NCBI GenBank assembly: GCA_000310025.1
Contig: FN649743.1
Location: forward strand, 2,946,126 to 3,010,125
From: Ectocarpus siliculosus
Taxonomy: Eukaryota > Sar > Phaeophyceae > Ectocarpales > Ectocarpaceae
Reading direction: 5' to 3'
Length of the DNA stretch: 64,000 nucleotides
Below the pieces are notes generated by a model. It saw nothing but the letters and a program-made list of their open reading frames with translations, ran no database searches and had not been told where the DNA came from. This document shows, one piece after another, positions 5,223-37,070 of this stretch (the first letter of the stretch is position 1; the number at the start of each line of letters is the position of its first letter). The position numbers and the translations under genes were made by a program.

Positions 5223-5639
5223 TGTTCGTGATAGTTGCTGCTGTGTGTGTCGACAGAGTAACGTAGCACAATATGATTGGACAGTTTGAATTGAGGGACT
5301 GTCGATGTTGCAGATCGCTGAGTAGCCACATATTATCAGAACAGCAAGGAACGTTCTGTAGGAATGCTCCTCGTGGATGGTGCATTTCCCCGAGTGTATT
5401 CTTTATGGATAGTGCATCAACCAGAGGATTCATGGTACGTTGTGAAGTACGTTGGCCCCTGTTGAGTCGTTGTGTTCCGATATTGTGTTCTGCTTTCGTC
5501 CGTTGGTCGAGCGACGGGTGGTGCTGCGGCGCTGCGGTGCTCGCCCCACCCTTGCTCACTCCACCTTTTGACCTGTTCTCCTGGTCCAAGGTCTCATCAA
5601 TACAACATCTTTTCCCCAGAAGCCACGAGTTTACCAACA
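5223..5639 (+). repeat. Copia 5' LTR
   Basis: The 417-bp repeat begins TGTTCGTGATAG and ends TTACCAACA. It is identical by eye to 10283-10699. No TGG-type primer binding site is obvious immediately downstream; the sequence there begins CGCTATAGCGAACCAG. Confidence 0.97.
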
Positions 5640-5726
5640 CGCTATAGCGAACCAGTCGACTGCTGCTTGTCCCCTTGGACTGTACGTCAAGACTGAACGG
5701 AGGAAGATTGATCACCTTGCTTCGTG

Positions 5727-6656: not shown

Positions 6657-6932
6657 AGATTTCGATTGCAAGCATTGAATTCGATCTGACCCCCTGGGTA
6701 GAGAAAGGATACAACATACATGGGTGTGCTGTGCCAGACTGAGATATCAAGGTGGATTTTGTTCGACTGTTTGAATAAGAACTCTCTCAATACCATGGCT
6801 AGGCATGCAGGTTCCCCCACCAAGTCATTTCGAGTGTTGAAAAATCACTTTCTACCCTTGAACCAGAGCACTGTCTGGAACCTTGGAGTTGGTGTTTGTG
6901 ACTGCTGACGTGAGTTTCTGTAGAATTGGAGC

Positions 6933-8753: not shown

Positions 8754-9566
8754 CTATCAAGAAGCCCGCCAATCAAAGTATTCCACGATTTGGGACGAAG
8801 CCATGTCTGTAGAATTTGAAGGCTTGTTAAGAGCAGGAACGTTTGCGTTAGCAGTAAAGGCTCCGATAGGCTGTAACGTGATAGATGCTAGATGGGTCTA
8901 CAAATGGAAAGCAGATGAATCAGGCAAGATAGTGAAGGCCAAGGCTAGGCTTGTAGCGAAGGGCTTCAAGCAGAAGCATGGTGTGGATTATCTTGAGACT
9001 TTCTCGCCTACTGCAAATGCTGCATCGATTCGTTTGTTGGTAGCATTGGCGTGCAAGTATGATTTGGAATGTCTTCACTTTAACATTGAGCAAGCGTTTG
9101 TTCAGTCGGAATTGGATCACGAGGTGTTCATGAAGTTGCCTCCTGGCTGTGAGTCGATGACAGGAAAGGTAGTCCGTTTAGACAAGAGTTTGGACTGAGA
9201 CAGGCATCTAGAACATTTCACAAGGGACTTTTGTCGGACCTGAAGAGGATTGGTTTCGAACAGTCTCTGTCTGACCCCTGCGTTCTTCGTTTCATGATGG
9301 GAGACGAGGTGTTGGGTATGATTGCGATTCATGTGGATGACATTCTGTATGCAGGAATTGAGAGGCTTGCCAAGATGGTTGTGGAACCGCTAGGTGACTC
9401 TCTCCCCACGAAGAATTTGGGCGAGGTCAAGTTCTTTCTTGGTTGCGCATTCGTTCGCGACCGCAAGGCTGGTACGATTGAGATGTCTCAAGAGAGTTAC
9501 ATCAGGAGTGTTCTCGAGAGATTCAATGTTTGTCGCACCAGCTCGATCCCTGCTTCCCCTGTTAAG
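8754..9566 (+). pseudogene. RT: Copia reverse transcriptase (Asp-to-Asn, frameshifted)
   Basis: The fingers and palm are clear: the ARWVYKWK block, ARLVAKGFKQKHGVDY, then HFNIEQAFVQSELDHEVFMK. At 9082-9084 the codon AAC puts Asn where Copia RTs have the first catalytic Asp (usually F-D-V/I). Translation stops at 9196 because about 4 bp are missing where LYGLRQ is expected. The frame resumes with GLRQASRTFHKG and reaches the second catalytic motif HVDDILYAG (about 9330-9350). Another frame change occurs at 9560-9572, before RNase H. The polymerase cannot be functional as written. Confidence 0.88.
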
Positions 9567-10190
9567 TGATTACAGGTCCGTGATGGAGGATGAGGCGGCA
9601 GGGGATGTGCCGTTCCGAGAGGTGGTGGGGAGCCTGATGTGGATCGCCAACCAGACAAGGCCCGACATCTCAAATGCTGTGCGGGCGGTGGCGAGGCACT
9701 CTCACGAGCCAAAGAAGAGCCACTGGAAGGCGGCCCAGAAGATTCTGAATTATCTTCTGGAGACGGCACATCTAACTTTGAAGTACAAGCAGGACACTAT
9801 GGTAGACGTAGGCACGTTGGTGTACGTAGACGCAGACTTCGCCAGTAAGGCCACTGACCGTAGATCAGTTTCGGGAGCACTAGTTCTTGTAGCTGACTGT
9901 CTTGTTGCTTGGATTTCTAGGACGCACAAATGTGTCACACTTTCAACAACTGAAGCAGAGTATGTTGCGATGGGTGACGGTGTGAAAGAGGCTCTGTTTG
10001 TCAATGGAATGCTCGAGTTCTTGAGGCCTAGTGAGAAGCTTGGTAAGATCCAGGTACGCGAGGATAACGAGGGTGCGATTGCACTTGCTGAGAATCCACT
10101 AGCGAAAGACAGCATGCGGACATCCTGACGAAGGCGCTGCCGAGAGATCTTTTTGAAGTTCATCGTAATTTTGCTCTAGGCTCGAGATCT
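9566..10190 (+). pseudogene. RH: Copia RNase H, internally deleted
   Basis: The frame contains VPFREVVGSLMWIANQTRPD, then YVDADFASKATDRRSVSG and THKCVTLSTTEAEY, standard Copia RNase H landmarks with the first Asp and the Glu, followed by VREDNEGAIALAENP. At about 10107 the sequence jumps to what in another frame is the C-terminal tail (QHADILTKALPRDLFEVHRN). The usual stretch between them, containing the conserved His region, is missing, probably a deletion of about 100 bp or more. The tail ends at a TAG near 10198. Confidence 0.85.
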
Positions 10191-10273
10191 GAGAAGTAGA
10201 GGTCTGAGTCGTGTTTTATTTTGGTTTGTTGTTTTTCTGTTATATATTTGATCTGGCCGAAGACAACAGCCCC

Positions 10274-10282
10274 AAGGGAGGG
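10274..10282 (+). other. Polypurine tract of the Copia element
   Basis: AAGGGAGGG lies directly before the TG of the 3' LTR, the position and composition of the plus-strand primer tract. Confidence 0.8.
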
Positions 10283-10699
10283 TGTTCGTGATAGTTGCTG
10301 CTGTGTGTGTCGACAGAGTAACGTAGCACAATATGATTGGACAGTTTGAATTGAGGGACTGTCGATGTTGCAGATCGCTGAGTAGCCACATATTATCAGA
10401 ACAGCAAGGAACGTTCTGTAGGAATGCTCCTCGTGGATGGTGCATTTCCCCGAGTGTATTCTTTATGGATAGTGCATCAACCAGAGGATTCATGGTACGT
10501 TGTGAAGTACGTTGGCCCCTGTTGAGTCGTTGTGTTCCGATATTGTGTTCTGCTTTCGTCCGTTGGTCGAGCGACGGGTGGTGCTGCGGCGCTGCGGTGC
10601 TCGCCCCACCCTTGCTCACTCCACCTTTTGACCTGTTCTCCTGGTCCAAGGTCTCATCAATACAACATCTTTTCCCCAGAAGCCACGAGTTTACCAACA
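10283..10699 (+). repeat. Copia 3' LTR
   Basis: Same 417-bp sequence as 5223-5639. It is followed at 10700-10704 by the second GAAAT target duplication. Confidence 0.97.
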
Positions 10700-10704: not shown

Positions 10705-11289
10705 AGCCTGCGACTGGGTCGTTCTCGGTATGTTTCGGGCCGAAAAATTAGGAGTCTATAAGCTGTGAGCAAAACCCCGTTGCGACTGCCTGAGTATCTG
10801 ACGGCGTCGACGGACGGACGCGATCCGCTATCCCGCCGACCTACAGCAGTACCTGCGTACCCAACGAATGCATGCATACACAACGAATCATTGTGACAAC
10901 AGAGCCAATACCTCAATACGGCAGTACCTTCTGACGGTTAAGTTGCTGCCCCCCTATTATCTGCTCAGCACGGACATGATGGATTGGTTATTACAACGTG
11001 ACCTTGCATGACCACAGAAAACGTTTCGAGCGGTGCTGCTGCATACCGCTGTGAGCAGAAATATTTTCCAGTTCTTTTGCGTCACCGTTCGAAATTCTTC
11101 GAAACCACCTTCTCCACTCTGTGCTCCCACGGATCTTATCTGTGGCGCAGGCACTCGTTCGGCCCGAAGTGGCTGGTGGTTGCCGAGCCCTTTGGCCCAA
11201 TACGATGGCACGGCACCACCTCGACGGTGTACATCTACCAAGTATCTACTACTGTATTTTGTACACCGCTCGGGACTCTTTTTGAAAAC

Positions 11290-11406
11290 ACCTGCAATGG
11301 GAATCGACCGCGTCAAGCGTTGGATCAGTACGGACATATGAAGGTACTGGGTAGAGAGAGATCGGAACGGTTTTTTATGTGAAGACAACAACAACAACAA
11401 CAACAA
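11290..11406 (+). mobile_element. 5'-truncated LINE tail in copy A
   Basis: GGGAATCGACCGCGTCAAG onward, through GGTACTGGGTAGAGAGAG and TATGTGAAGAC, matches the extreme 3' end of the LINE copies at 34767-39176 and 46895-50752. It ends in about 7 AAC units. The same fragment sits at the matching place in copy B (52680-52815), where the AAC array has about 15 units, so it predates the duplication and only the array length has changed. Confidence 0.85.
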
Positions 11407-11702
11407 TGGGCACGAAACCCACGGCGCTTTGTTCCCACGGTCTCCAGAAGCCGTCGTTCGGCCCATACTGACCGGCGGTTGCCAAGATATGCCGAAGGAG
11501 GCGGCCGCAGCCCCATCACTTCGGCGGTGGCGTAGATCGGGCTGACCGACGTATAACACCTCTCGAAAACCGTTTTTGAAACCACCTTCAACGGGCACGA
11601 AACCACCTGCAACTTTTTTTCCCCACCACCCCCAGCTGTTACACAATACAAGCCGTCGTTTGGCCCAAACCAACGCGTGGTTGCCGAGATATACCATCGG
11701 TT

Positions 11703-12026
11703 GTGGCGGGGGTGAACCAGTCGGTTGTGCTAGAATCGAAGGCTGCGACGGTGCGAGGTGGGGACGTGTTCGCTGCCGCCCAGGGGCAGCAGGTGGACGT
11801 CATGGTCATTCTTTCGGGTTCCGTAGTGGTCGACACGGGCGAAGCCGCGAACGAATGCCAGTTCACCATGAAGAACTACTGCGAAACAATGAGCAGCAGA
11901 GAGGGGAACCTACGGTCGTACGATCGTACGGGCGTGTACGTGGGAAACACCGGATACCTTTTCGGTTCAACGCCGTTGGTTTGTGCCATCGTTTGTACCA
12001 TCGTTTGTACCATCGGTTTTGAATAA
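11703..12026 (+). pseudogene. Short ORF shared by both duplicates; start lost in copy A
   Basis: The frame AGVNQSVVLESKAATVRGGD runs for about 107 codons with a hydrophobic middle (VMVILSGSVVVDTG) and a repetitive end (CAIVCTIVCTI, from three copies of a TTTGTACCATCG-like unit). In copy B the equivalent frame starts at an ATG at 53103; here that codon is ATA. Differences between the copies are mostly amino-acid changing (V/I, V/G, Y/D twice), which suggests no purifying selection. Function unknown; possibly a remnant from an old element. Confidence 0.35.
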
Positions 12027-12899
12027 TAATGCCGTTGCTTTTCTTCGATGGATGGTCGAGGTACCCACACAAAGGAGGGAGAGGTGGTTGTCACAGGGCC
12101 AACACCTCGCGAGAAGAAAGTCGACGGGGAAAACTTGAAAGAGAAGCACCGGCACTGGCCGCGCATCCACCCCTTGCTCTTCTCGCAACCAGAGGCTGAG
12201 CATGTAACACTAGTCTCTTGGAGGTGGAGAAACGGTGTCCCATCCATCAATCAGCGAGTTGGAGGACGGGGTGACAAGGCTATTAAGCAATATCTAACGC
12301 CGCTGGGACCGATGTTGCTACCACCGTTTCTTCGGCGAAGGGCTGCAAGACGCGTTGTGTGCTATTGGCGGCCAGTTGCAGTGGTACTGGCGTGTTCACC
12401 CTAGTGTATACAATATAGTCTACGTTCACAACACACGAGTTTGTGGCAAAACATGCGTGTATGTTGGTCAAAGCTACTTCTTGCGGGAGCGGAGCTGGTT
12501 GTCATCTCGAGGAAACAGTCGAGGGCATCACCAAGAGCTTGTCCCCAACACAGAACCAACGATGGCAAGAGCCAGATTCGGCCATATTGGCGCAAGCCAC
12601 ATTGGTGAGTTGTTGGCGGAACCGGTATAGAGGTGAATGTGAGCGATATGGGTATTTCCATCAAGATCACCCTGGAATTGTTTGGCTGGCACAAAACGTA
12701 TTTCAGTCTTCTCATCGATATCGGTCTCTTCCGGTGCGGCCTTGATTGATGAATGACAGTTTGGCTGGCACAAAGTGTTTCAGTCTCATCGATATCGGTC
12801 TCTCATTGGGGGGGGGATCCAACCCCCCCCCAGGCCACAACCACCACCATGCCATAACACACTGTGCACCACACCACACCGTACCCAGTATCCACCTCA
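12027..12899. other. Non-coding part of copy A; G/C hairpin
   Basis: No gene is supported. A near-duplicate of about 45 bp (TTTGGCTGGCACAAA, then ATCGATATCGGTCTCT) occurs at about 12679-12730 and 12770-12812. A run of nine to ten G is followed by GATCCAA and a run of C (about 12806-12832), forming a strong hairpin. Both features are retained in copy B (54215-54246). Confidence 0.5.
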
Positions 12900-13527
12900 C
12901 AGCAGGACGCGTTTCCGCGGCAGTCGAGAAAGGAAGTCGGCGTTACCGTTCGTGGAACCATTGCGGTACTCAAGAGTATAAGTGTAAGCGGTAAGAAACC
13001 CTAGGCATCGTTGTGCGTGGGCGTTGTGTTCTCACTAACCTTCACCAGTGCTCGAGAGACTTGCGTTCGGTGAAAATCTTGAAGTGGGTACCCCAGAGAT
13101 ACCCACGGAGGCGGTAAATGCACCAAATGGTGCTGCCGGCTTCAAGATCAAGAGGAGTCCAATGACGCTCAGATTCAAAAGTCGCCCGACATACGAAAAC
13201 AAGAGGTCGAACAGAACCATCAGGTTGCTCTAGTTCAAGAGTACCACCAAATCCATCGCGGCTCGCGTCACAATAGGGGCGAAAAGGCCGCGACCCGTAA
13301 GAGACGGTATCCCAGTCTGGATACACCGAAACTGGCGGGGTTGTTAATTCGGCAAGAAATTGCCTTTCGGCGGGTTCCATTGCATCCGTGAACTCAAACC
13401 GCAATTGTGTACGTATGGATGAAGAATATGGTCTCGCTCGATGGGTGTCGAGACAGCATGTTCGTTCGCTTTCCGTCAGATCTTGTTCGTATGCATTCCT
13501 GTGATATTGCACGATATAACTTGTCAA
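12900..13527 (-). pseudogene. Ty3/gypsy RNase H remnant (copy A)
   Basis: On the minus strand the frame shows RFEFTDAMEPAERQFLAELT, then TPPVSVYPDWD, PYCDASRDGFGG, RATFESERHWTPLDLEAGS and LRGYLWGTHFKIF. This is the thumb to RNase H part of a gypsy Pol. The block that is usually T-D-H-K reads TERK here (TEHK in copy B), replacing the Asp. A frameshift follows near 13045, after which the usual ending FLTAYTYTLEYRNG and DFLSRLP can be read. No RT palm, integrase or LTR is seen beside it, so it is an orphan fragment older than the duplication. Confidence 0.85.
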
Positions 13528-15135
13528 ACCGGTGTTGCGTTAGAGCGACCGTTCGGGTGGCGTCGGTTTCTACGGTAAGGAGCCTAATCCGAGGCGTTCC
13601 AAACGTGGAGTAAACTCGCCTTCCTCTCCTCTATACTGTCCATTTTCATCTGAATATTCCCCTGTTACTTGGTTTCTTTGGTGTTCGCCTCCTTAGGAGT
13701 TGGGATCGTAGCCCTCTGAAGTTTGCCTGGATCGAAATGCCCCCATTCTTGGTCGATATCCTGTCTTCGGTACTCGCTACTGATACTTTGAAGTATTTTA
13801 GAACCTTACGTAGTGTGCATTTTCAGAGTGCCCGGACCTGTGCAGTGTTTACCTTATTGACAAATATGCTCCTCGGTTGTCTTTGCGTTGATTTGAGTTC
13901 GCTCTTGGAGTCTCAGCGCCTGTACACTTGGTGTTAACAATGCGCATGAGGTCACGGTAACTTGATGTATGTATGCCACGAAAACGTAACAATTGATCCT
14001 CAAACTTTGGACGGCAAGTGGCGAATTTGCATCGTTCTCTTCAATGTGTGTATGTCGAGCCTGATTGTTCAACGGCGGGCTCTGCTCAGCACGTCCGGCT
14101 TCAGCGCGTGCTATCTCGTCCAAGGTATTGTAGCGATATACCGTTCACCCGGACGTGCCAGATATCGTATCGTCGGTCCCTGCTATGGTGCCTGCGGAGA
14201 GTCAGGACTCGGAGAATGGAACGACCGCCTTAGAGGGTAAGCTGCCATCCAATAGCTTTTCGTTGCGAATGAGAGTGTTCGTCGTCGTTTCAGGTATTGC
14301 TAAAATGGCGGGAATCTGTTTCCAGTGCAACCTCTTTGGGTGCTATGATCCTCTTTCATGTTGCGCAGTGTGTCAATCGAAGCCCCCCGTCCCACTTCAC
14401 ATTGCAATGCGAACACCTACTTCTAAACGTATCTGCAGGTTGTTGCTTGCACCTGTTGTCTCTCAAGTTTTACCGGTATGTAAGGGAGGGCGTACGGAGG
14501 AAATGAAACATTTCTCGCGTAACAGACACCTGGTGCAGCTGGATGCACTCTACCTGGCTAGATCCGCATGGTCACATCGAATGTTTCGCAGGTTTTTGTT
14601 TCAAGTATGAGCTTTGGGCCTAAGAAATGGGTGCACCCGGCGCGATCACAGCCACAGTCGGAAACCCCAAAACCCGGGGCTCGCAGCCACCGCGTGGCGC
14701 CATCTGATCGGCTGCTGCCCGCAGCCACCCAAGTGCATTCGTAACATCATGCTGTGCAAACTTCATTCTATGCTCTGCCGCCACCCCTGTCTCCTCCTCT
14801 TTTTTAACAGTTGCAATACATGCTCATCTCTCTAAGGGGCGTGCTATTGATCTGGATGACCCAGCACGCGTATACACAGACAGATGGTGTCCAACGTTCC
14901 CAAATGAGCCAGCCTGCTTTCGATTATTTCCAAATTCTACCTGGAAGTTGTCCAGAGGGAGACCGCTGCACCTTATTCCACCTATATAGGACGAAACAAA
15001 GGCGGACAATCGAGTGCGGTTGTTGTCATTTGTAGGCTTACAGAAGCAGTCCGATGTCGGATCGAAATGGGTATTTTTGGTCCAGAAGTCGTGATTTATC
15101 AATAACTCAAGGCCACCACCTCTATTTCGCAAAAA
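13528..15135. other. Unassigned part of copy A with weak coding traces
   Basis: Plus-strand frames such as MPDIVSSVPAMVPAESQDSE (from 14155), with a donor-like GTAAGC at about 14239 and an acceptor-like TTTCAG at about 14289, are kept in copy B (55572 on). They lack recognisable domains and could be remnants. On the minus strand near 15030-15075, FDPTSDCFCKP is the fused remainder of a Cys-rich exon that is longer in copy B (60093-60215). Confidence 0.35.
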
Positions 15136-22419: not shown

Positions 22420-23955
22420 TCACGGGACACCTCCGCAAGTGGGATCGTAGTCACTCAGAGAGACGGCAAAAGTATCAGACTGGGTGGAGGAGATGAAATC
22501 GCCCTCCTCGATCCACGCCACTTCTCCGGAAACGCGGGCAGTCAGGCGCCAAGTTTCCGTGGCCGCGTCGCCTGAGAAGAGTTTGACGTACGTCTCGTAC
22601 TCGCCGAGCACCTGGCTGGCGGCGGGATCGAGTCCGCTGTCGATGATGTAGTTCTCGGGCCCGAACCCGTACACATCGTCGTTGTCGAGGAACCCGACGT
22701 CCTACGGAATCAGCAGCAGGTTCGTGAGGAGAGGCGGGGATAAGCAATAAGTGACGACAGCTTCCACCAAAGGTACTGTTCGGGAGTGCTCACGGCTACG
22801 CCTGATGCCACTGAACACTGGTGTGCAGCCGACCCGTGCGCGCTAAAGCATGTTCGACTTCCCCAAGTTGCCATCCAACGGCAACAGGCCACAACGGCCG
22901 GTCAGACGTGCCTGAAAAGACTCTTTCCGTCGGCACTTCGCTTACCCCAAACCGGTTGCTGAAGTAGACGACCTCTCCGCCGGGCTCGACCACATAGAGA
23001 TCTACGTCAGATGTCTCGCCGGTCCACTCCAGGGTGATCGTCAGCGACGGCACACAGGCAGAGTTGGAGACGTCGAGCGCGAACGCCGTGTCGGCTCCCG
23101 CGGTATCAAGTGCCTCCGCGGGATCCACGACGACGAAGCTGAGGAGCAACCTGGTGCTGCCCGCTGGGATGTCGGTCACCACCGTCGAGAACGCCCCCGT
23201 CGAGGGATCCAGTGCCTCCTGGCCGCGGACGAAGTCGTCCGGCTGTGCCGTGTTCTCGGTGTAGATGAAGACGGAAGTCGAGCTCGGCAGCGCCGCGCCG
23301 TCGTCGCGAACGAAAGTGCCGGACAGCGACACGGAGCCGCCGTCCTCCTCGGTGAGCTGGATCGTTCCCGCCGGTGTCGTGGTGAGGGATCCCCGGGCCG
23401 GCAAAGCCGCCCGTGGCCTGTGCATGGAGAAGTTCACGGTACGCAGGAGGAGGGGTTTTTATGTGACCTTCAGAACTTCTCGTTCGAATTCGAACATTGT
23501 TTTTGTGCCAACGAACTTGGTGACGGTGGTCTGCCTGGACAAGAAGCTGCAACGGGCCGCCGGCCGGATGGGCCCGATGTTGTGTCCACGGCACGGTACA
23601 TGTCGTAGAGCTCGGCTGTGCATGGCCGTTTCTACCTGACGGCTTGGCAGCTTCTGGTGCGGTGCTCCCAAGGCGGAGAGCTGCGACCAAGACCACGATC
23701 CATGTCCTCGCGGGAACAAACAGATTTCGACACCAACGGCGTCTTGGCCAACGACATCTCAAAGACCTCGTTCAGTGATAAAGAACATGACACGGACAAC
23801 GCGAGCCATGAAGCGTACCACCATAAACGTAGAATCACGAGAGTTGATCATTTTTCGCACAGCTATTGCTAGCTAGGTAGAGCTGCCTGAAAGCAAACTT
23901 ACGTCAGCTGCCATGGCAGCGGCGATGTTCTCGGGGAGACTCAGACCCACGAGCT
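22420..23955 (-). CDS. Exons 14-16: DUF2135-like C-terminal region
   Basis: Exon 14 (23903-23955) gives ELVGLSLPENIAAAMAAD between CTTTGCAG and GTAAGT. Exon 15 reads LTEEDGGSVSLSGTFVRDDG, then LTITLEWTGETSDVDLYVVE and PGGEVVYFSNRFG, to the donor at 22945. Exon 16 continues DVGFLDNDDVYGFGPENYII and ends DYDPTCGGVP. The WTGETSDVDLYVVEPGGE..YFSN and GFGPENY signatures match DUF2135-like beta-sandwich domains. Two acceptors are possible for exon 15: at 23357 (phase 0, fits, but poor pyrimidine tract) or at 23418 (better tract, breaks phase by one base). Confidence 0.7.
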
Positions 23956-26900
23956 CTGCAAAGGAAAAGCAACGCGAGAGCAACAGGGGTTTCACGGCGT
24001 CAGCAAGAGCCACGCGATGGTAACGAGAACTTGCAATACATATGAAGGAAAACGTAAATTCTTGTATGCTGCGTCCCTCGTTGACGCACGAACGTTATGT
24101 GGTGCATGTCATACAGGTGTTGAACAATGTCTTGTAGCCAGCTTTGGGTCGCAATTTGCCTCTCCAGGTGGTTGTGAATGGAGGAGAAGAGACAACTTCC
24201 TGAACACTTCAGCAACCCCATTCTTTGTGAGTCCTATACCTTAGTCAGCAGTCCGTTGAAAGCTCCATGTCATTTAGAACACCGTTAGGTTTGGCGGCAG
24301 GTGCGCCTCAACATCGGCGTATATCCTTCCAACGCCTGACCGCTGACAATTTTCCCAACAACGTACATGCTTGTTCTCAGGAAATGCCTCCATGCCATGC
24401 TGTGTGCGCGGCATTTAAACGCAGCATGCGGCTTTAGACTGCGCTCGGGCACAAATGTTCGGGGCTACAGGCTCAGTAGGTCAAAATTGACTGCACCTTG
24501 ACGGATGCACGCGGTCGCCCCGGTGCCGGAAACTTCTCCGTCGGGGCAAGTCGTGCAGGGCGGCGCGCCGGTGCTGCTGAAAGAGTTGCTCGCGCACAAA
24601 CCTGTTTCGTGGGTTCAGGTACGTTTGGTGCAAACAACGCGTGGGGCTTAATTTAATTCGAGATCGAGGTTGCATAATGTGCCAGGCAGAGTTGGCGGTG
24701 ACTGCGGGTGTTGATGCCACAAGGGCTGCGTTTTGAGCCGGTTGCTGCCAGCATCGACGCCTTTTACCCGCCTAAAAGACGTGTATTTTGTCAGGTTTCG
24801 ACCACACAGCTACGCCGTAGTGATGACAGGCCCCGTTCAGCGCGAGGGATTTCGAAAAACAGTGACCATAACAACATAGAGAGCTGGAGGACAAGCGCGT
24901 CGCTAGAGAAGATCCAGGTTTCTCCCAAACCAACCGGCGGCGCCGTTCTTCTCTTTGACCTGCAATTGTTCATTTAGCCTTTGTCCCAGGTTCTTTCGCT
25001 ATTCAGTTTTCTTCGTGACTGAATCAGTCGCCGGTAGATCTAGCCTGCGTCCAACCTGTGAAAAAAGGTCTCTTCAGGGGACCTATTTAGACGCAATAAC
25101 CCACCCTCACCGCCACCAGCTACAATGGTGCAGGATCCACGCAAGTCGTGTACCACACGTGGTCAAGGTTTAAAGAGTGTTTGATTCATATTTTCACTAC
25201 GCAAACCGCTTCATCCATGCTGCAAACTGGGTTGATTTCGCAGGAGCAGGCGCATTGGAAAGGGAAACGACTAAGTCCACGACCACCGCCGCCATCAGTA
25301 CACTTGCCCGCGACTTCTTCCTGGTAGGCTCGATCCTCCGCTTGTCCTTCGAGCGTCGCCTGACCCACCTCCTCGCCAGCAAGAAGGGCGTCTATGATGC
25401 AGTCGGCGTTGTCGCCGCACAGCTGAGATAATTTTTTACGTAAAGTGGCGGGAGGAGTGAACCAGTCGACACGGCATCGCTGGGGAGAACCAAGTTCGGA
25501 TAGGTATGATGACGAGAAGTATGGATGCCCCTGACGCTCTATTTACTACTGTGCGATCGATCACGAAAACAGCTCTGCTCCTTCATGGAGGACACATGTC
25601 GACGTTTTAGTCTATGTAAACGTGTCGAATCGCACTCAAAACAAACGCGGCCAGCTACAGTGCGTCCCAGGGACCCCGAGGACATGTGTTCGAGTTTTTG
25701 GTCTTTCGCTGAAACCCGATGTGTTCTCCCGAACGTACCTCCGTGATTGACGCCGGGATGGCATCGGGCAACACGGGCGCCGCGTAGACCGCGTCGCACA
25801 AGTCGAACGTGCCGTGGTCCTCCCCCTCCGCGTAGGTGAAGAGAGACGCGTCTGCCGTGGTGCACCAGTTCGTGGTGCAGTAGTTCGTGCCTTCTTCCAC
25901 TGTCGGTGAGGCAGTCGCGAAGCCGACAGTCTCTCCGTCCACGGTCTGCCGCGTTCAGCAAGGGGAGGGACCTCAAGCGTCAACATATCTCCTGTTCTAC
26001 TCGATGAGGTGTGTGGAGTAGGGAGAGAGAATAGGGGTAGGCAGTAAGTGCAGACGGGCACAAGTTCGACGCACGGACAACACCGGTTATCGGCGAACAA
26101 ATTGACGGGAGGGAGGAACAAGAGTCGCGGAAGTACTTCGGTAACACTTGAAGTTCAAGCAAACAGCGGCGGCCTTTACTTCGTGTAGATGCTGGCAGAG
26201 GTACAACGCACAATGCAGCACCAACCGAGGTCTTGGTGAGGCGTAACCGCAGTGCATGACTGAAAAAAACTCGTTGCATGATTTGATTCGCGAAGCCTTT
26301 TCTCACGCTCACCGTAAAGTCGTCGCCCAGCTCTCCGTTGTTGTTGCCGAGGAGACCCGTAGTGGCGAGGCTGACGGGCGCATACGCGTTGACCCTCAGC
26401 ATTCCGTTGATGCTGGTTGACACGAACACGTCTAGTCCCGACTCAAAGCTAATCTCCACCCGAGACGACGTGACCTCCAGCGCAACTCCGATGACAGAAG
26501 TAGCACTCGCGTCGTACAGCTCTCCATCCACCAAGACCTCGACACCGCCGGAGGCAGCCGTCGTCACCTGGATCAAAGAAGAGGTTCCCTCGCGCGCTGC
26601 GATGCCGGTGGTGACCGTGACCGCTGGGTTCGGGTTTTGGCTCCACTGCTGGAAACGGGCCTGGACTTCGCTCTCCGTGGCGGCAGCCTTGGTCAACACA
26701 AACTCGCCCTGCCCGTGGCAGTCGTACCCGGTGCCGTCGTAGACCCGCAAGTGCGGATCTCCGTCTGCGGATCCACCTGACATGGCAGTCCAGACAAGGT
26801 GGAACAGGTCACCGGTAGAAGGTCAAGCATGGGCTTGGGCGGCGAGGCCACGGCCACAAGTGGGGTACGCCTTAAACTCTCTCGGTATACGCCAAAAGCG

Positions 26901-29900
26901 CGTATCAGACAAAACAAACGCTGGAAAGGCATTCTTCCATCTCTCCTTACCGCGTTTCTGCACGGGAACCGGGAAGAAGGAAGAGGTCGAAGATGGATTG
27001 CGACCAGCAGAATGATACGAAGGGGGTGGGTTGAGAGAGCGGGTAAGCTTATGTCCATGTAGTTGTTGACAGGATCAGCAACAAGCAGGGTGGATTAACC
27101 AAAGCATTACGGCTCCCTCGGCCTAGGCATCGACATCGTGCTGTTTCCAGCCTGTCCGCCCGAACACCAAACTCAGCACTGGTACAGCAATTCGTATGGC
27201 CTAATCAATTGTCGATGGTGCTTCGTTCGTTCAATGTCATGTGTGGCCCGGACCGATCCACGTTTCCAGCCTGGCTAGAGGCAGCCGGGGTACGCTCTGC
27301 CCTCCAAAGCGTGTGTATCGTATGTTAGGCACGTGTTAGACTGTGCCGGCGCGATTGTTGTCCCCGAATGACCGGCAGATCCTAGCGCGGAAAATCTCCG
27401 GTAGTTTAAAACGACGGCTCGGAGCAAACGACTAAGAGAATTGCGCGTACGATCGCAGGAAGGGAGATCCGTCTCGAATTTCCAGCAACGATAACTGGCC
27501 AATAGGCTTAGAGGCTTACCGGTTCGGGCGTGGGAGAGGGTGCGGGTGTGGCTTGGCAGGTTTCTTCCCAATCTCGCTGTTTCTGGACGGCCTCTTCATG
27601 GGCGTCATTCCCACCCAGAGCAACAGCAAGATAAAACGCTGTGCCGACAATGTTACATGCGGCTAAGGGTTTAGGGTTAATAATCGCAAGAAGCCCAAAC
27701 GTAGACCAACATCCGGCGAGGTTATCCCCCCAAAATTCCAAATCACAGCCACCCTTGTCTTCAAGTCTGGCAGACCAGCAGTAGTCATGGTTACAACACC
27801 CGTTGCCGAATGGTGTAAGTTCTGCGATAATTCTAGTAGCTGCACTCGGCCAATCCGCCGGACCACATCCATTATCACAACCGCTCGGGTTTGAGGAACA
27901 TTCATAACATTTGCCATCCGGACAATCATTGTAGGGACAAGGTGGACCCTCCCATGCATCCCTACATTCCCCCAACAGTTTACGACCATCGATCTCACTC
28001 GAAACACACATGCTCCCTGCGAGAGACTCCCAGGGAACGTCTTGGAGCTCGGTCAAACCGAGGTCGTCAACATCCGTACCAGAGACGGTGTCAAGCGGGG
28101 TCAGCAAATCTGAGGTCAGGATCCAACAACTCGACCCAGAACAACTAATCCCACTGTGCTCTTGAGAAGCTTCGATCCCAACAATCTTCCTCATTAGGGG
28201 AAAACATTCACACGAATCAACCAGGGTGTCTGCATATGACACGCCTTCTTGACCATTCATAATGAGCAAAAGCTCATCTGGTTGAATGGTAGGTGAAGTA
28301 GGCGACTCCACATAGATCCATGAATCTGAACACCCCAAAATAGTAATGTCATCTCCAACTTCCATTCGCACAGTACTTACAAACTCCAGTGAGGAGTTGG
28401 TAGGAACTACTGACGTGGTAGGGGCCGAGGTGGTGGGGGCCGAAGTGGTATCATCTGAAATGCAAAAATCGGCGGAAGATCGCGTAGGGCACATGCACGG
28501 CGTAGTTGGGGCAGAATGGTCAAAGGCAAGAGTCTACCACAGCCACCCGTGCAGTTGGCACAAGACAATTTTTCTTCCAAAAGCTCAAGTTGGAAAGGTT
28601 TCCCTTGAATGTCACGCAGATTACCAACGGGCGGTACTACGATGAGGTGACCCAGCTAGATTACAACTGAACATGTTGCTCGGTCAAGCAAACTCACCGT
28701 ACGTGCCGCGGGAGTACAGCGAGTACGCGTAGGACCCCCCGCGTGGGAAGTGCGGACAGGAAAAAATGGCGACGGCAACGAGGACGTTTTGAGATTGGTT
28801 CGGAGTAATCAAGAAATGATGCACCGACTACAAGACGTGATGATGTCGAAGCGAAACAAGAGGTATTGAGACAGTTTCGCCCGTAACACGGAAAGTGCAA
28901 GCACGAGAAAAACACCGCCAACGCAGAGAAACAAAAAAAAAGGCTTCATACGAAGCTGGAGGTTCATCCCCAGAACTAGCATGTCCGAAACGGAAGGAGT
29001 TTGGTGCGCAAGAACGCATCCGCTCGAGAACGGCACAAATCCAAAGCCAGAGAGACTCACCAGCGGTAGGAGCGCTGGTCGGCGTGCTGGTGGGCATGAC
29101 GGTGATTGTAGGGTCCAGAGTTGGGTACGAAGTCGGAGAGCCGGTAGGCGCAAACGACGGTTCAATCGTCGGACCCTCTTCTGAACAACATGTTAACCGA
29201 CGACCCCCAAGGTGGACGGAGGGTGGAGGGGATGAGTAAAGACAGTGGGATAGAGGAAGAGAAGGAGGGCGTCAGAGAGATCGATTGACAGGACGACAAG
29301 AAGGGCAGGACCGCCTCCAAAGCCCAACAAGCTTAGCTGCCCCGCGATCGAGTCGCCTCATTGTTTGAGGGGTCAATCTGGCGCTTTTCTTGCATCTGCC
29401 AACCAGCCTAGACCACCGGGGGTTCCTACGGGGACCACCCCCTCATGTCCTATTCTCACCGCAGGTTCCGCGATAGTACAGCGAAAACGCGTCGTACGCG
29501 CCGCAATCGCGAGAAGCCTCGCCCGTGCACGGGTGATCTGTGCAAGAGGCGGTACCGTGCCTGTCAAACCGGTGTCCCTCATCCAACAGGTCGCAGCCGC
29601 CACACCAACACCTGTTGAGCACGTCACACAACGGTTCACTTTCTGCGGGAAGACCTGCGTGTTGTGCCAGGATAGCAATGGTATTTTATCCCTCAGGCTG
29701 CTATCGTCTACGGGTTTCACAGAAAACACAGTGGAAATTGAGCCCAAAAAACGCGTTTGTGCACATGCCCATCCAAGTGGCAGCCTCGCAAGCCGTTTTC
29801 TACAGCCTTGGCGGAAACGGTCCCATCAACGTGTACCTCTACTTGTGAATTCCATGCCCAACATAGTTTTCGAAAAGGCGGTTGCTCTTTCAATATGTTC

Positions 29901-32534
29901 TCACACGCCTGGGCAGAAGCATCATTGTTCCACGTGAAGTACAACAAGTAGACCTCGCACACGCAAGCGAGTCCGCGGGAGAGTACTACTCACTCTCGTC
30001 CCCACTGAAGGGCGAAGAAAGGCTTGTCCATCGCCGTGCAGTAGTCCTCGCACAACTTCAGGTTCGGAGAAACCGACGCGGTGGGCGGGGAAGTCGGTTG
30101 TCAAGAAGGCGAAGGACAGCTTTGGTACAAGGCCGGGTGCTTGGCATGTTCTAGTGTTACAGGGCAACTAGATCCACGATGGGGTGCGTCGCTCCAGCGA
30201 ACGCCGTCCGTGAAACAGCTTTCACCTGCAGCGACATGTCGCCGGATGACATCTTGTCCCCTAGCACGCGGTCGCTCTTGTCATCGGCAAAGCATCCGAA
30301 GTAATGGTCCTCCGAGGGGGAAAGTGGCCCTAGCTCGAACAGGTCGAACGCATCAAAACCACCGCAGGTGGTGCCAGCATCCCCCGTGCACGCCATGTCG
30401 CAGGTTCCGTCGCCGTGCCTGAGGTGGACTTCGGCGGCGCACCAACACTTTTTAAAGGGGGCGTGAGGACAAGGGCAGGAGCGGGGCAACCGTGAGCGTG
30501 TGGAGCATGAATGAATGGGACAGCTTGATGAGACAGGCATCTTTCGCTCATGCGCCTGTGGTCCCACTCCTAAAGATTGTGCGACGACTTCGAACGAGCA
30601 CGGCGAAAAACCCTGAGTAAACGAGGTAAAGGAGCTCACGGCAAACCTCAAGTCCCGCCAAAACCCACCGGTGCTCTCGATCGCTACATCACAGAGAGTG
30701 CTGCAGATCAAACCACGCTGCTGGTACCGTACCTCGTGGCCCCACTGCGTGGCGTAGTACGTGTTACCGGGTGACTCGTCGGCACAGTAGGAGGCGCACG
30801 CCTGAAAACGAAACCGTAAGTGACAACAACCGGGGATGCGAGAGCCGACCATGTCAGAGAAACACCGCGGGTTGTCGAAGTTTGTACATTCGCCCCCCTG
30901 TTGCAGTTCGGCGCCAGGCTTTCGCGATAAAGGCCCCGACGACGCGTGTACCGGACAACGACCGTGACCTGTCTGTAACCGTGAAAAAACCTCTAGGCGA
31001 TGGCGTTGTTCCATGCACAAATTTGGCAACTGCCGACGTGCAGTATGCCTGGTACAGTGTATGCTCGCTTTGACGAAACACATGGAAAGGCGGTTATTTC
31101 GTGTGTCTGGTGTGTTCCCGTTTTTCCAGAATCTGTGCAACCCCGCCTGCCCATCTACCTCGGAGGTCATTTCGTTGGAAGACGATTTCGCTCCCAGGAC
31201 GCGGTCGTTCTGGTCGTCGGCAAAGCACCCCACGTAGTTATCGTCCGTAGGAGGGCTCGGAAGCTCCCCTTCCTCCAGATCGTACAAGGAAAACGAGTCG
31301 AACCCGCCGCACACAATCGAATCATCTCCGGAGCACTGGTAGTCGCACGTGGCGGCGCCGTGCCTTCTGAGGTCGACGCTTTCGTCCTGGCACCAGCATT
31401 CTCGACCGTACTGTGTCGCGTAGTGCGTGTAGCTGGAAGGTTGGCCACGGCAGTAGTCGGCGCAGACCTGGACAAGGAGTGCGCAAATAACGCGAACACG
31501 TCCGACACAAAAGCTACGTGATCGCAACACCGATCGACGACAACGCCAGTATCTCCAAGCACCGCCACTTTCGCACCGACGCTACCTTCGAGACGGCAGT
31601 TGGTGATCACGGGCGAAAGCACTGAAGGACACCAGATGCATAACAACCTAATCATGGTAGTATATATACCGACTAAAGTATTGCGGCGGCGCCTCATAGG
31701 TCAACATATATTCCCCTCACGCCTCTTTTTCGGAAGCGGTACTCCATGCCCATAACCGCGCAGACAAATAATCCAGAGTTGTTCATGGCGAACAAACGAC
31801 ACTCGGTAGCGTTCGACCTTCTATATGCCAAAATGTACAGCGCGAACTTGGTTGGCGACATAGCTCACAGCCTAACTCCTAGCCTGGCCAGCCGCTCCCG
31901 GGCACTCTGAGAGGGGCCTTTCGGGTGCGGCGTCTACTCTCTACTCACCGTAGGTGTCATTTCGCTACTCGACCATTTGGCCGTCAGCACTCGGTCCGAT
32001 CGATCGTCCGCGAAGCAGCCGACAGAACCGGGTTGCGCTGGGGTAGAGTACACGCGAACCCGCCAAGTGGTTGCAACGCCCAAACCCGAGGGAAGGGTGC
32101 AACGGGTGAGGAACGAGAGGATATGCAAGGAGAGCGATAACAGTGACGGTGCGGTGCGTACGAAAGCCGGCTGCCCATCTGGAACAACGTCATACGCACT
32201 GCCTGCGTTGTACCTCGCGTTCGGATCGTCTTTTTTGAAGTGCGAACCATGAGACTGTTTGCTGACACTCTGATCCAACTGGAAGGGGAGGCATAGGGTG
32301 CTGGTTGGCATTAGGCTATGTTTTCAGTCGCCGGTTCGGGCACGACGGGCTGTTCTTCAACAACTTGAAAATAGCTCTGTTGTACAGCGAAACGACCTCC
32401 ACAGTTCGGCCGCCAACCTGCCCGCGGCAGGAGACATGCATAAATTACACACCAAAGTTCACGAGCAGGCCCTCACCAGACGATATGCCAACGAGCGCAG
32501 CGCCGAGCGCCGCAAAAAGAGTGAAACGCCCCAT
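22420..32534 (-). CDS. Secreted mosaic protein: 3x WSC, PLA2-like, VWD, Cys-rich modules, DUF2135-like
   Basis: Exons, minus strand: 32477-32534, 31949-32037, 31159-31467, 30733-30801, 30226-30447, 29994-30055, 29460-29611, 29061-29180, 27520-28454, 26313-26776, 25739-25945, 25308-25422, 24497-24601, 23903-23955, 22946-about 23356 and 22420-22701. ATG at 32534 was chosen because it opens a signal peptide (MGRFTLFAALGAALVGISS) that splices in phase to the first WSC domain. Lengths and phases agree at every junction except exon 9 to 10 (one short exon missing) and the start of exon 15. WSC and VWD domains are extracellular modules, so a wall or cell-surface role is likely. About 1,200 residues. 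No membrane helix is seen. The end may instead continue through a good donor (GTGAGT) overlapping the stop at 22420-22422. Confidence 0.72.
24497..25945 (-). CDS. Exons 11-13: Cys-rich modules after VWD
   Basis: Exon 11 (25739-25945) is TVDGETVGFATASPTVEEG, then NYCTTNWCTTADASLFTY. Exon 12 (25308-25422) is LCGDNADCIIDALLAGEEVG and so on. It ends GCGG|GCAAGT, a GC-AG donor whose phase 1 fits exon 13. Exon 13 (24497-24601) is LCASNSFSSTGAPPCTTCPD then GEVSGTGATACIRQ, an ephrin-receptor-like/GCC2-GCC3 Cys repeat. This order of modules after a VWD is typical of metazoan-like mosaic proteins and their algal counterparts. Confidence 0.75.
26313..26776 (-). CDS. Exon 10: VWD domain
   Basis: This 464-bp exon reads GGSADGDPHLRVYDGTGYDC, then HGQGEFVLTKAAA and, later, LATTGLLGNNNGELGDDFT. 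GDPH with FDG/YDG and the GLLGNNNG.. DDF ending are hallmarks of von Willebrand type D domains. It needs one base from the preceding exon, whereas exon 9 ends in phase 0, so a short exon of 3n+1 bases should lie between 26777 and 27519. Confidence 0.85.
27520..28454 (-). CDS. Exon 9: PLA2-like domain
   Basis: A 935-bp exon starts at the acceptor TTTTGCATTTCAG and ends at CCG|GTAAGC. After a Thr/Pro stretch (DDTTSAPTTSAPTTSVVPT) comes an unassigned domain with paired Cys, then CPDGKCYECSSNPSGCDNGC and FGNGCCNHDYCW. The CC.HD.C motif matches the catalytic His-Asp signature of secreted phospholipase A2 proteins, with one residue fewer between CC and H than in the common form. The Ca-loop is not clear, so activity is uncertain. 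A hydrophobic stretch (IVGTAFYLAVALGG) and a Pro-rich tail (TPAPSPTPEP) follow. PLA2-like is inferred from the motif. Confidence 0.65.
29061..29180 (-). CDS. Exon 8: Thr/Pro/Ser linker
   Basis: This 120-bp exon reads EGPTIEPSFAPTGSPTSYPT, then LDPTITVMPTSTPTSAPT, a low-complexity spacer likely to be O-glycosylated, between the WSC array and the PLA2-like region. It enters and leaves at phase 1. Confidence 0.8.
29460..30055 (-). CDS. Exons 6-7: third WSC domain
   Basis: Exon 6 (29994-30055) reads LCEDYCTAMDKPFFALQWGR and ends inside the Glu codon. Exon 7 (29460-29611) completes it and continues CWCGGCDLLDEGHRFDRHG, CTDHPCTGEASRDCGAYD and FSLYYRGTC. The insert DLLDEGHRFD is longer than in the other two domains. 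The intron splits GA|G, giving the expected GRECWC. Confidence 0.83.
30226..30801 (-). CDS. Exons 4-5: second WSC domain and start of the third
   Basis: Exon 4 (30733-30801) is exactly 23 codons, ACASYCADESPGNTYYATQW then GHE, ending at the donor GTACGG. Exon 5 (30226-30447) starts CWCAAEVHLRHGDGTCDMAC, then TGDAGTTCGGFDAFDLF, closing the domain, and begins the third with FGCFADDKSDRVLGDKMSSG. Both exons are phase 0. Confidence 0.85.
31159..32037 (-). CDS. Exons 2-3: first WSC domain and start of the second
   Basis: Exon 2 (31949-32037) gives VGCFADDRSDRVLTAKWSSS and ends phase 0 at GTGAGT. Exon 3 (31159-31467) continues VCADYCRGQPSSYTHYATQ, CWCQDESVDLR and CSGDDSIVCGG, the Cys spacing of a WSC domain, which binds carbohydrate in yeast wall sensors and fungal and algal proteins. 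It then opens the second domain with VGCFADDQNDRVLGAKSSS. Splitting WSC domains at the same place by phase-0 introns is repeated in the next two domains, as expected for duplication by exon shuffling. Confidence 0.85.
32477..32534 (-). CDS. Exon 1: signal peptide
   Basis: Nineteen codons plus one base: MGRFTLFAALGAALVGISS, with a basic N-terminus, a hydrophobic core and a small-residue end, followed by the donor G|GTGAGG. Joined to exon 2 it reads SSAQPGSVGCFADD, so cleavage would fall just before the first WSC domain. Confidence 0.75.
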
Positions 32535-34775: not shown

Positions 34776-36587
34776 GAATTCCTCAAGATCGACGTCGACG
34801 ACGAGAAACCTTTCGTCCTGGAGCACCTCCGTGACATCGTCGTTGAGGTGTGGAACGGAAGAGAGATCCCCCAAGAGTGGAAGGACGCAACTATCAAGGT
34901 GTTGTACAAGAAGGGTGACCGGTCCAACTGCAACATTTTCAGGGGGATCTCGCTACTATCTCACGTAGGCAAGGTCCCCATCAAGATCATCACCAACCGC
35001 CTAAGCGCATTCTGCGAAACCAACGACATCCTCCCGGAGGAACAATGCGGGTTCCGACCCGCACGATCCACTATCGACATGCTTGTTCATCATGCGCCGA
35101 CTCCAGGAGCTGGGGCGGAGAAGGAAAATACCACTCTACATGTGCTTCGTCGACCTGAAGAAGGCGTATGATTCGGTGGACCGAGAGATGCTGTGGAAGG
35201 TCCTGGCCAGGGCCGGGATTCCTGAGGAGGTGATCGCCGTCATCCGCCAATTCCACGACGGAATGCGGGCCCGGGTGCGCATGGACGACGGAGAGTTTTT
35301 CGCCTGGTTCTTGGTCACACAAGGCCTATGACAAGGGTGTATGCTGTCCCCACTGCTGTTCAATATCTTCTTCGCCGCGGTCATCGAGGTCGTTGCCATT
35401 CGATTCAGCGAGGATGATGTTAGTCTGGAGAACCTCGTGTACCTGGAGGAGGAAACGGGAGCGGGGGCGAGGACACCACTTGACCGCGTGCGGAGGGCGG
35501 TATGGGGGATGCTGTATGCCGATGACGCCGGCGTCATATCGAGGTCTGCCGAAGGACTGGCGAGAATGATGACCAGGTGTTCGGGGAGTTCGGGCTGACG
35601 GTATCGGAGAAGAAGATGGAGACGCTCCTGATGCGCGCAAAGGAGAAGCACACAACAACACCACCGCCCCCCCCGCCGCCACCGCTGATCATCGAGGCAG
35701 CAGGGCAGAGGTATGCCCAGGCGCCTGAATTCCTGTACCTAGGTGGCCTCGTCAACGAACATGGCGACCTCACCCGTCAGATCAACTACCGGAGCAGAAC
35801 GGCGTGGGCATGCGTCAGGAGATATGGCCAGGAGCTCTTCGACAGGCCGAAAGCACCGTTCCTACTGAAAACTCGCCTGCTCCAGGCCGAGGTGATGGAG
35901 GCACTGCTGTTCGGCTGCTTGACATGGGCCCCACGTCAACACCAATACCGGACGTTGCGGACGATACACCACCGACTGCTTCTGCGAGTCATCGGTTACC
36001 AACGCAAGAAGGGCACCTACCGGCAACTTTCCTACGCCCAGATCCTGAAGAGGGTAGGGTGCCAGAGCGTGGAAACCACTATCCGGCAACGGCGCCTGCT
36101 GTTCGCGGGAGCGCTGGTAGGGCAGCCAGACGGACGACTCCCGAAACGGGTGATGGTTGACGAATTGGTGGGAGGGGAGGGCCCAGGCAGGGGGAAGCCG
36201 GAGCAAAACTGGCAGATGTGCCTGAAGGACGACCTCAAGATATTTGACGCAGAGCACGGATCTACGGACGCCGAGCCATGCTTCTTCGGAGTCCCGGAAA
36301 CAACTTGGATGGAAGCAGCGGAGGTGGACCTGGGGATACCGTGGCATACAGGGGTACTGCAGGGAGCAAAGAGGTTCATGGCTGCCTGGTATAAGAAAGA
36401 CGAGGAGGCTAGCCGACAACGAGCACTCAAACGAAACAAGAAGCCCGACAACAACACGGACACGGCAACAACCATGCGGGCGGGAGGGGTACAGCAGGCG
36501 GACGAGACGGCGAGGGGGAAGGCAGGAAACGCGAAGAGGCGGACCGAGTGGCGCGAAACACCGTGCCGAAATGAACCTCTTGCTTGA
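34776..36587 (+). pseudogene. LINE ORF2 remnant, copy 1
   Basis: RT motifs can be read in pieces: [55 protein letters not shown], then an in-frame TGA at 35329-35331 directly before QGCMLSPLLFNIFF, and MLYADDAGV with the catalytic Asp pair. Frameshifts occur near 35083 and 35573, the latter from a 10-bp deletion relative to copy 2. The C-terminal part is one open frame, 35577-36587, with KEKHTTTPPPPPPPP, FLYLGGLVNEHGDLTRQIN, LLFGCLTWAPRQHQYRTLRT and RRLLFAGALVGQPDGRLPKR. The gene cannot be expressed as one protein. Confidence 0.9.
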
Positions 36588-36589
36588 CT

Positions 36590-37070
36590 TATCTCCCCCC
36601 CCCCCCCTCCCCAGCACTGCATGCACCATTGCACCAACCCCCTGCTAGCGATGACGTGCATGGGCTGGCTCGAGTGGCCCGCGTTGTCTTGTGTTGTTTT
36701 GTGTTCTGTTTGTTTGTTTGTTGCTTGTCGCTAAGGCGTGTGTCTTTCTCTTTCTCTTTGCTTCTCTCCATCTGCTCTCTTCCTTTCTTTTTCTGTTTCT
36801 TGTTCTCTTTTTGCTCTTTTTTCTTTTCCCTACTTTTATTTTTTCTCTTTCCTTTTTTTACTGTTTCTATCTTTTTCCAATCTAGGGTTGCTTTGCATAG
36901 AGTGCAGAGAGGAAAGTGGAGTGGCCTAGACTATCTGTCGATGACTTTTCTTGGCTTGCGAACCCTTCGGGTCCATTTTATTTTCGTATATCTATTTTAT
37001 GGGTAAGTTATCCTGTGACCACGGGAATCGACCCCATCAACTGTTAGACTAGTACGGATAGAAGAAGGTA
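36590..37070 (+). other. LINE 3' UTR with pyrimidine tract
   Basis: A C-run at 36594-36606 is followed by a strongly T/C-rich stretch at 36690-36880, also present in copy 2 (50370-50515). Open frames here encode only Phe/Leu/Ser runs and are not genes. Confidence 0.8.

What the first reader, a model, noticed from the sequence alone, without database searches (positions are those of the whole stretch)
22420..32534. Mosaic extracellular protein combining three WSC domains, a PLA2-like domain, VWD and a DUF2135-like end
The reading frame can be followed through at least 16 exons with matching phases. WSC and VWD modules are known separately in algae; a WSC array joined to a PLA2-like His-Asp motif and VWD in one secreted chain is unusual and suggests a wall- or surface-tethered lipase-like protein. 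The PLA2 assignment rests on the CC.HD.C motif.
Basis: partly seen in the sequence, partly recalled or inferred. Interest (0 to 1): 0.72.

Follow-up and report, generated by a model that had tools for sequence, protein, structure and literature searches.

The report
Wall protein with inserted lipase-like exon
A gene probably from an alga seems to encode a secreted wall protein built from known adhesive modules plus one odd, foreign-looking exon that resembles a lipid-cutting enzyme, but whether that exon really belongs to the same chain still needs RNA evidence.

Summary
On the minus strand, 32534..22420, 17 exons can be followed: signal peptide, three WSC domains (Pfam 1.8e-39), a Pro/Thr linker, exon 9 with a PLA2-like motif, a VWD domain (3.4e-11) with a GDPH motif, a C8-3-like piece and a C-terminus similar to bacterial YfaP/DUF2135 (E. 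coli YfaP 5e-6). Phases match at every junction except the critical one: exon 9 ends in phase 0, the VWD exon needs phase 1. A 7-nt microexon would repair it, but 30 of 300 control windows offer as good a candidate. The gene reads in frame without exon 9, whose own frame meets a stop just past its donor. Exon 9 is coding yet compositionally foreign (GC3 0.46 against 0.75, P = 3e-20) and lies beside a truncated WSC exon. PLA2 kinship: no Pfam hit, a failed fold, but 9.3 bits against a bacterial PLA2 set (1 of 1000 shuffles higher). Best reading: a wall-associated WSC/VWD protein into whose phase-1 intron a PLA2-like module was inserted; GDPH may cut the chain just after it. A new combination of known modules; one-chain membership and enzyme activity are unproven.

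The parts
32477..32534 (-). E1: start codon and signal peptide MGRFTLFAALGAALVGISS|A
   Evidence: hydrophobic N-terminus
31949..32037 (-). E2: start of WSC domain 1
   Evidence: Pfam WSC over the spliced array
31159..31467 (-). E3: rest of WSC 1, start of WSC 2
   Evidence: Pfam WSC
30733..30801 (-). E4: part of WSC 2
30226..30447 (-). E5: end of WSC 2, start of WSC 3 (weak acceptor AAAAAG)
29994..30055 (-). E6: part of WSC 3 (weak acceptor)
29460..29611 (-). E7: end of WSC 3, phase-1 donor
29061..29180 (-). E8: Pro/Thr-rich linker, phase 1 in and out
   Evidence: sub-threshold Pfam PT repeat
28693..28750 (-). Relic: 3' end of a fourth WSC exon with its donor, no acceptor seen, 5'-truncated (boundaries approximate)
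   Evidence: aligns to E7 end with score 57; maximum of 500 shuffles 41
27520..28454 (-). E9: linker, uncharacterised Cys-containing stretch, PLA2-like stretch with CCNHDYCW and GCD, second Pro-rich linker; GC3 0.46; frame runs into TAA at 27508-27510
26951..26957 (-). Candidate microexon AAACGCG that would join E9 (phase 0) to E10 (phase 1); hypothetical
   Evidence: 30 of 300 control windows as good
26313..26776 (-). E10: VWD domain with GDPH motif
   Evidence: Pfam VWD 3.4e-11, FCGBP 2.6e-10
25739..25945 (-). E11: Cys-containing stretch after the VWD
25308..25479 (-). E12: C8-3_MUC4-like piece; GC-AG donor
   Evidence: 24.3 bits, cut-off 25
24497..24601 (-). E13: short Cys-rich module (ephrin-receptor-like by eye, recalled)
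   Evidence: only a weak sub-threshold Pfam hit, NCD3G
23903..23955 (-). E14
23636..23766 (-). E15: fits the phases, no known domain, the exon of the second block I trust least
22946..23417 (-). E16: first part without a known domain, then first half of the DUF2135-like region
22420..22701 (-). E17: second half of the DUF2135-like region, stop codon

Best explanation
One gene for a secreted, probably wall-associated protein of about 1300 residues. SHOWN by sequence: signal peptide, three WSC domains, Pro/Thr linkers, VWD with GDPH, a C8-3-like piece, a DUF2135-like end; exon 9 is coding, differs in composition from the rest, and lies between two exons that are phase-compatible without it. INFERRED: the ancestral gene was WSC3-linker-VWD-C8-3-DUF2135; exon 9, a PLA2-like module with its own linkers, was inserted later in the phase-1 intron between E8 and E10, next to a broken WSC exon, perhaps from a related WSC-PLA2 gene. 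WSC domains hold the protein on wall polysaccharide; the exon-9 module would act on lipids near the plasma membrane or on invading cells, or be a catalytically weak relative. The VWD may self-cleave between Asp681 and Pro682 (numbering of the model with the microexon), just after exon 9, dividing the chain into a WSC-PLA2-like half and a VWD-DUF2135 half that stay together only if other contacts hold them.
For: WSC x3 1.8e-39, VWD 3.4e-11; VWD to FCGBP 2.6e-10; C-terminus to E. coli YfaP 5e-6 and a Citrobacter DUF2135 protein 1e-4. Exon 9 GC3 145/312 against 744/991 elsewhere, P = 3e-20; period-3 0 of 2000 shuffles. Relic WSC exon end, score 57 against a shuffle maximum of 41. PLA2-like: 9.3 bits, 1 of 1000 shuffles higher; hhalign P = 1.6e-4, 0 of 150 shuffles; the bridge set is recognised as PLA2 by Pfam (L141 6.6e-10). 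GDPH cleavage: passages of PMC10880436, abstract and section 2.5 of PMC6696261. WSC as putative carbohydrate-binding partner domain in brown algae: passages of PMC12879055 and a figure legend in PMC8307928.
Against: E9 to E10 is out of phase without a postulated microexon that chance often supplies (30 of 300). No Pfam or NCBIfam PLA2 hit; fold failed; not significant against 120 actinobacterial PLA2-like proteins (3.4 bits, E = 0.98); CC and HD are one residue closer than in the classical motif (recalled); the PLA2 alignment spans only 24 columns. The best-scoring relatives of the C-terminus (Comamonas, 4e-8) are annotated as hypothetical and the one scanned has no Pfam hit. No relative of the whole architecture was found; no eukaryotic genome collection was available. 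GDPH is not always cut: MUC2 made in one host was uncleaved (passage), and the SUSD2 paper's abstract suggests a serine protease rather than autocatalysis. At the offset of the Gln that assists cleavage in FCGBP (Asp+14 by that paper's numbering, ungapped) this protein has His.
Confidence: 0.45

Rival explanations
1. Exon 9 is an alternative part of the gene: one isoform ends after E9 (WSC3-PLA2-like, stop TAA 27508-27510), another skips E9 or uses an internal E9 donor (28080 or 27999, phase 1) and runs into VWD-DUF2135, so PLA2 and VWD are never in one chain.
For: E8 out and E10 in are both phase 1; the E9 frame meets TAA within four codons of its donor; phase-1 donors inside E9 upstream of the PLA2-like part.
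Against: E9 has a good donor (8.4, within the range 6.2-9.8 of the accepted ones; the model was trained on these sites) right after a Pro-rich linker, which is what a mid-chain module would have.
Confidence: 0.27
2. Two adjacent genes: WSC3-PLA2-like ending after E9, and a separate VWD-DUF2135 gene.
For: Phase conflict at E9/E10; E9 stop codon.
Against: A search of 28454-26800 for an initiating exon ending in phase 1 found six candidates, all inside E9 and none with a signal peptide by eye; E8 to E10 fits in phase.
Confidence: 0.13
3. Exon 9 is not a phospholipase A2 but an unrelated Cys-rich extracellular module with a chance CC.HD.C motif, or a catalytically dead relative.
For: No Pfam or NCBIfam hit; motif one residue short of the recalled pattern; no fold; one of 1000 shuffles scored higher.
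Against: E9 beats 999 of 1000 and 150 of 150 shuffles; the match includes a second conserved Cys-Asp at the place of the third catalytic residue (assignment recalled).
Confidence: 0.35

Closest known systems
MUC4/SUSD2-type VWD proteins (VWD with GDPH, C8-3)
   Same: VWD with GDPH followed by a C8-3_MUC4-like stretch; possible Asp-Pro cleavage
   Different: No Pfam AMOP or NIDO hit and no clear transmembrane segment in the model (these domains of MUC4/SUSD2 are recalled); N-terminal half is WSC domains and a PLA2-like exon; C8-3 just below the Pfam cut-off
Brown-algal WSC multidomain proteins (e.g. WSC plus CAP in PR-1, passages of PMC12879055)
   Same: WSC as putative carbohydrate-binding module joined to another extracellular domain
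   Different: Partner domains are PLA2-like, VWD and DUF2135-like
Bacterial plasmid-borne PLA2-family proteins (L133-L144)
   Same: HD.C[YW] preceded by Cys, and a following Cys-Asp
   Different: Bacterial proteins with a CG..CG.G-type loop, which exon 9 matches only in part (NGCGP)
YfaP/DUF2135 bacterial proteins
   Same: C-terminal region 32-52% identical over 41-91% of the query in the 20 plasmid hits listed; four of the 20 are annotated YfaP or DUF2135
   Different: There it lies in bacterial proteins; here at the end of a eukaryotic mosaic, and below Pfam's reporting level

Membership tests
WSC domain (PF01822) | Profile match above the gathering score | tested here: met
   134.3 bits against 27.8, three stretches
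VWD domain (PF00094) | Profile match above the gathering score | tested here: met
   44.1 bits against 22.9; FCGBP chain 2.6e-10
Self-cleaving VWD | GDPH motif | tested here: met
   GDPH at model residue 680
Self-cleaving VWD | Cleavage between Asp and Pro | not testable with these tools
   Needs protein; mechanism from passages of PMC10880436
C8-3 of MUC4 type (PF23263) | Profile match above the gathering score | tested here: inconclusive
   24.3 bits against 25, 21.4, 24.2
Secreted phospholipase A2 | Profile match to a Pfam PLA2 family | tested here: not met
   0 families for exon 9 and its parts at E up to 10
Secreted phospholipase A2 | Catalytic His-Asp in a CC..HD.C context | tested here: inconclusive
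   CCNHDYC has His-Asp and Cys but one residue fewer than the classical pattern (recalled)
Secreted phospholipase A2 | Homology to recognised PLA2 sequences | tested here: inconclusive
   9.3 bits, 1 of 1000 shuffles higher; hhalign P 1.6e-4, 0 of 150 shuffles; not significant against the actinobacterial set
Secreted phospholipase A2 | PLA2 fold | tested here: inconclusive
   AlphaFold2 without alignment, pLDDT 40
Secreted phospholipase A2 | Calcium-dependent lipase activity | not testable with these tools
   No assay
DUF2135 (PF09906) | Profile match above the gathering score | tested here: not met
   No hit at E up to 10
DUF2135 (PF09906) | Sequence similarity to annotated DUF2135/YfaP proteins | tested here: met
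   Citrobacter DUF2135 protein 1e-4, E. coli YfaP 5e-6; the Citrobacter protein scores 62.5 bits for PF09906, the Comamonas one has no Pfam hit
One-chain WSC-PLA2-VWD protein | In-phase splice from E9 to the VWD exon | tested here: inconclusive
   Direct join out of phase; microexon candidate matched in 30 of 300 control windows

The most novel reading that the evidence does not exclude
A wall protein with an insertable lipase cassette: a PLA2-like exon of foreign composition was captured in a phase-1 intron of a WSC-VWD gene, can be left in or out by splicing, and when included is separated from the VWD half by autocatalytic Asp-Pro cleavage a few residues downstream, giving a wall-bound lipase half that self-processing exposes.
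Probability: 0.15. Interest if true: 0.72.

Novelty: new variant of a known kind. Interest (0 to 1): 0.5.

Why it matters
If the chain is real, it would join a wall-anchoring array, a lipase-like module and a possibly self-cleaving mucin-type domain in one secreted protein of a eukaryote that appears to be an alga, and would show an exon capture whose composition still differs from its host gene. That would give a concrete case of how extracellular proteins in such lineages gain new functions, testable with one full-length cDNA.

Tried and rejected
Own genome: none held. Relatives of exon 9 in viral and prokaryote contigs: none confirmed; phage tblastn with the PLA2 part best E 0.8, in capsid genes; plasmid tblastn with exon 9 best E 6; PHROGs none. 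PDB sequence search with the PLA2 part: only chance-level hits, best E 0.25. Structure of the PLA2 part without an alignment: pLDDT 40, so no fold search was run. Group XIV-type actinobacterial PLA2 as closest family: not significant. PLA2G12 family in 3 genomes: nothing, but the 14 controls did not ring either, so it says nothing; a bacterial PLA2 protein in 100 genomes of one phylum: nothing. DUF2135 in 149 genomes of that phylum: none; the control E. coli rang. Relatives of the DUF2135-like part in viral contigs: none. Transposon-style ends or target duplication around exon 9: no inverted repeat of 14 nt or more, one 14-nt near-repeat judged chance. NCBIfam hits of the VWD exon to dehydrogenases (5.5e-4, 19.3 bits against a cut-off of 258) were judged spurious. 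Literature for such a domain combination: the listings showed no title or abstract on it; most listed papers were not opened and the library lacks most subscription journals, so this is no proof of absence.

Full report
What was checked. The finding describes a minus-strand gene, 32534..22420. Reading the strand in three frames (one search was cut and its middle was read) and assembling exons by splice sites gave 17 exons, from an ATG at 32534 to a stop ending at 22420. Exons 2-7 encode three WSC domains (134.3 bits, 1.8e-39, three stretches in the spliced N-terminal part). Exon 10 is a VWD domain (Pfam 3.4e-11; closest solved chain FCGBP, 2.6e-10). Exon 12 gives a C8-3_MUC4 match just under the cut-off (24.3 bits against 25). 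The last two exons give no Pfam DUF2135 hit, but tblastn finds 22 plasmid records with similar sequence. Of the 20 listed, three are annotated YfaP (E. coli, 5e-6 to 2e-5) and one DUF2135 (Citrobacter, 1e-4); most others are hypothetical or unannotated, among them the best scores (Comamonas 4e-8, 51% identity over 42% of the query). The Citrobacter protein is a clear PF09906 member (62.5 bits); the Comamonas protein has no Pfam hit.

The weak junction. Phases agree inside E1-E9 and inside E10-E17, but E9 ends in phase 0 and E10 needs phase 1. Of the three donors in E9 scoring above 5, only the final one lies past the PLA2-like part, and it is phase 0; the two phase-1 donors (28080, 27999) lie upstream of it. 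The best repair is a 7-nt microexon, AAACGCG at 26957-26951 (score 13.6); but 30 of 300 control windows of equal length, tiled on both strands outside the gene, contain a candidate as good. The splice model was trained on the same 16 introns, this one included, so these scores are relative only. Two observations bear on the alternatives. E8 ends in phase 1 and E10 begins in phase 1, so the gene reads through without E9. And the E9 frame reaches TAA at 27508-27510, within four codons of the donor. Against a separate second gene, the six initiating exons of the right phase found in 28454-26800 all start inside E9 and have no signal peptide by eye.

Exon 9 is different. Its third-position GC is 145 of 312 codons, against 744 of 991 in all other exons together (Fisher P = 3e-20). 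It is nonetheless coding: period-3 signal 5.43, with none of 2000 shuffles reaching it (maximum 2.91), the nine introns over 300 nt 0.22-1.24, and 0 of 20000 shuffles stop-free. Its third positions are T-rich (0.36, against 0.09-0.14 in E3, E10 and E16), rather like the integrase and RNase H frames of retrotransposons in the same window (T 0.32-0.33, GC3 0.46), while two LINE-like RT frames have GC3 0.74 and 0.65, so this resemblance does not name a source. In the intron before E9 lies the 3' end of a further WSC exon with its donor but no acceptor that I could see; it aligns to the end of E7 with score 57, against a maximum of 41 in 500 shuffles. E9 carries Pro/Thr-rich linkers at both ends. 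Together this suggests that a module was inserted in a phase-1 intron with a broken piece of a WSC exon; the source is unknown, and a local duplication could also have made the relic.

Is it a PLA2? Pfam and NCBIfam give nothing for exon 9, and the single-sequence fold failed (pLDDT 40). A motif scan of viral contigs (11 stretches) held one long frame, an Rhs-like protein with a PLA2-like end (L124/L132), which led to PLA2-like proteins on Bacillota plasmids. I fetched 12 of the 25 records; left out were seven near-duplicates of one Bacillus hit, five staphylococcal records and a second Brochothrix record. Four of these 12 proteins were scanned and all four hit Pfam PLA2 families, one above the cut-off (L141, PF00068, 6.6e-10). 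Exon 9 scores 9.3 bits against a profile of the 13 sequences (E 6.5e-5 as a single comparison, with a large composition-bias term; 1 of 1000 shuffles higher; controls: WSC part -17.1, reversed -11.0, VWD part -1.1), and hhalign gives P = 1.6e-4, probability 51%, 0 of 150 shuffles as good, over 24 columns. The aligned stretch includes His-Asp and the later Cys-Asp, which by recalled PLA2 chemistry would be the third catalytic residue. Against 120 actinobacterial PLA2-like proteins the score is not significant, although no one of 200 shuffles exceeded it (3.4 bits, E = 0.98). The spacing CC-N-HD is one residue shorter than the classical pattern (recalled). I judge PLA2 kinship about 60-65% likely and an active enzyme about one in three.

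How it may work. WSC domains are described as putative carbohydrate-binding modules in brown-algal proteins (passages of PMC12879055), and WSC proteins are named among brown-algal wall proteins (figure legend in PMC8307928). The VWD has a GDPH motif at model residue 680. In other VWD proteins such motifs are cut between Asp and Pro; in FCGBP, Asp and His of the motif are needed, and where the linking disulfide is lacking the cut could in principle fragment the protein (passages of PMC10880436). The same paper reports that cutting stabilises the FCGBP domain, that the purpose of cutting is not known, and that MUC2 was uncut in one host. In SUSD2 the two fragments stay disulfide-linked, and that paper's abstract suggests a serine protease. 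Here no Cys lies between residue 660 and the GDPH, so the usual strand-1 disulfide appears absent. If cut, the chain divides just after exon 9. This step is inferred, not shown.

Novelty and limits. The modules are all known; their combination was not seen in the listings of six paper searches, which cover open-licence papers only and of which I opened only two papers (passages). I therefore call it a new variant of a known kind, with the decisive evidence being one full-length cDNA.

Noticed in passing
window 5223-10582: 300-nt direct repeats, 100% identical, 5060 apart, around an integrase (rve, 31.8 bits, just under the cut-off) frame at 6924-8750: probably a recently inserted LTR retrotransposon.
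   Followed up: partly
window 11060-14287 and 52430-55704: Blocks repeated at about 41.4 kb spacing with 96-98% identity, including an RNase H retrotransposon frame at 13045-13539; another 300-nt block at 15066 recurs at 60350, 94% identical.
   Followed up: no
window 34877-36998 and 48316-50635: Two copies of a LINE-like reverse-transcriptase element, 87-99% identical block by block, about 13.5 kb apart; one lies about 2 kb upstream of the gene start.
   Followed up: no
window 3748-5088: Inverted repeat with 525-nt arms, 99% complementary, 291 nt apart.
   Followed up: no
L124/L132 (IMG/VR 3300015371_001168): A contig of the viral collection encodes an Rhs-like repeat protein (by eye) ending in a PLA2-like domain.
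   Followed up: partly
L133 1147-2731; L134 2054-4614: Plasmid genes for PLA2-like proteins annotated as hypothetical lie beside sigma-70-family sigma factor genes (and an anti-sigma gene in L134).
   Followed up: no
L068: A contig labelled Bifidobacterium breve MAG carries the actinobacterial PLA2-type motif.
   Followed up: no
window 25308: The donor after exon 12 is GC (GCAAGT), a GC-AG intron if the model is right.
   Followed up: partly
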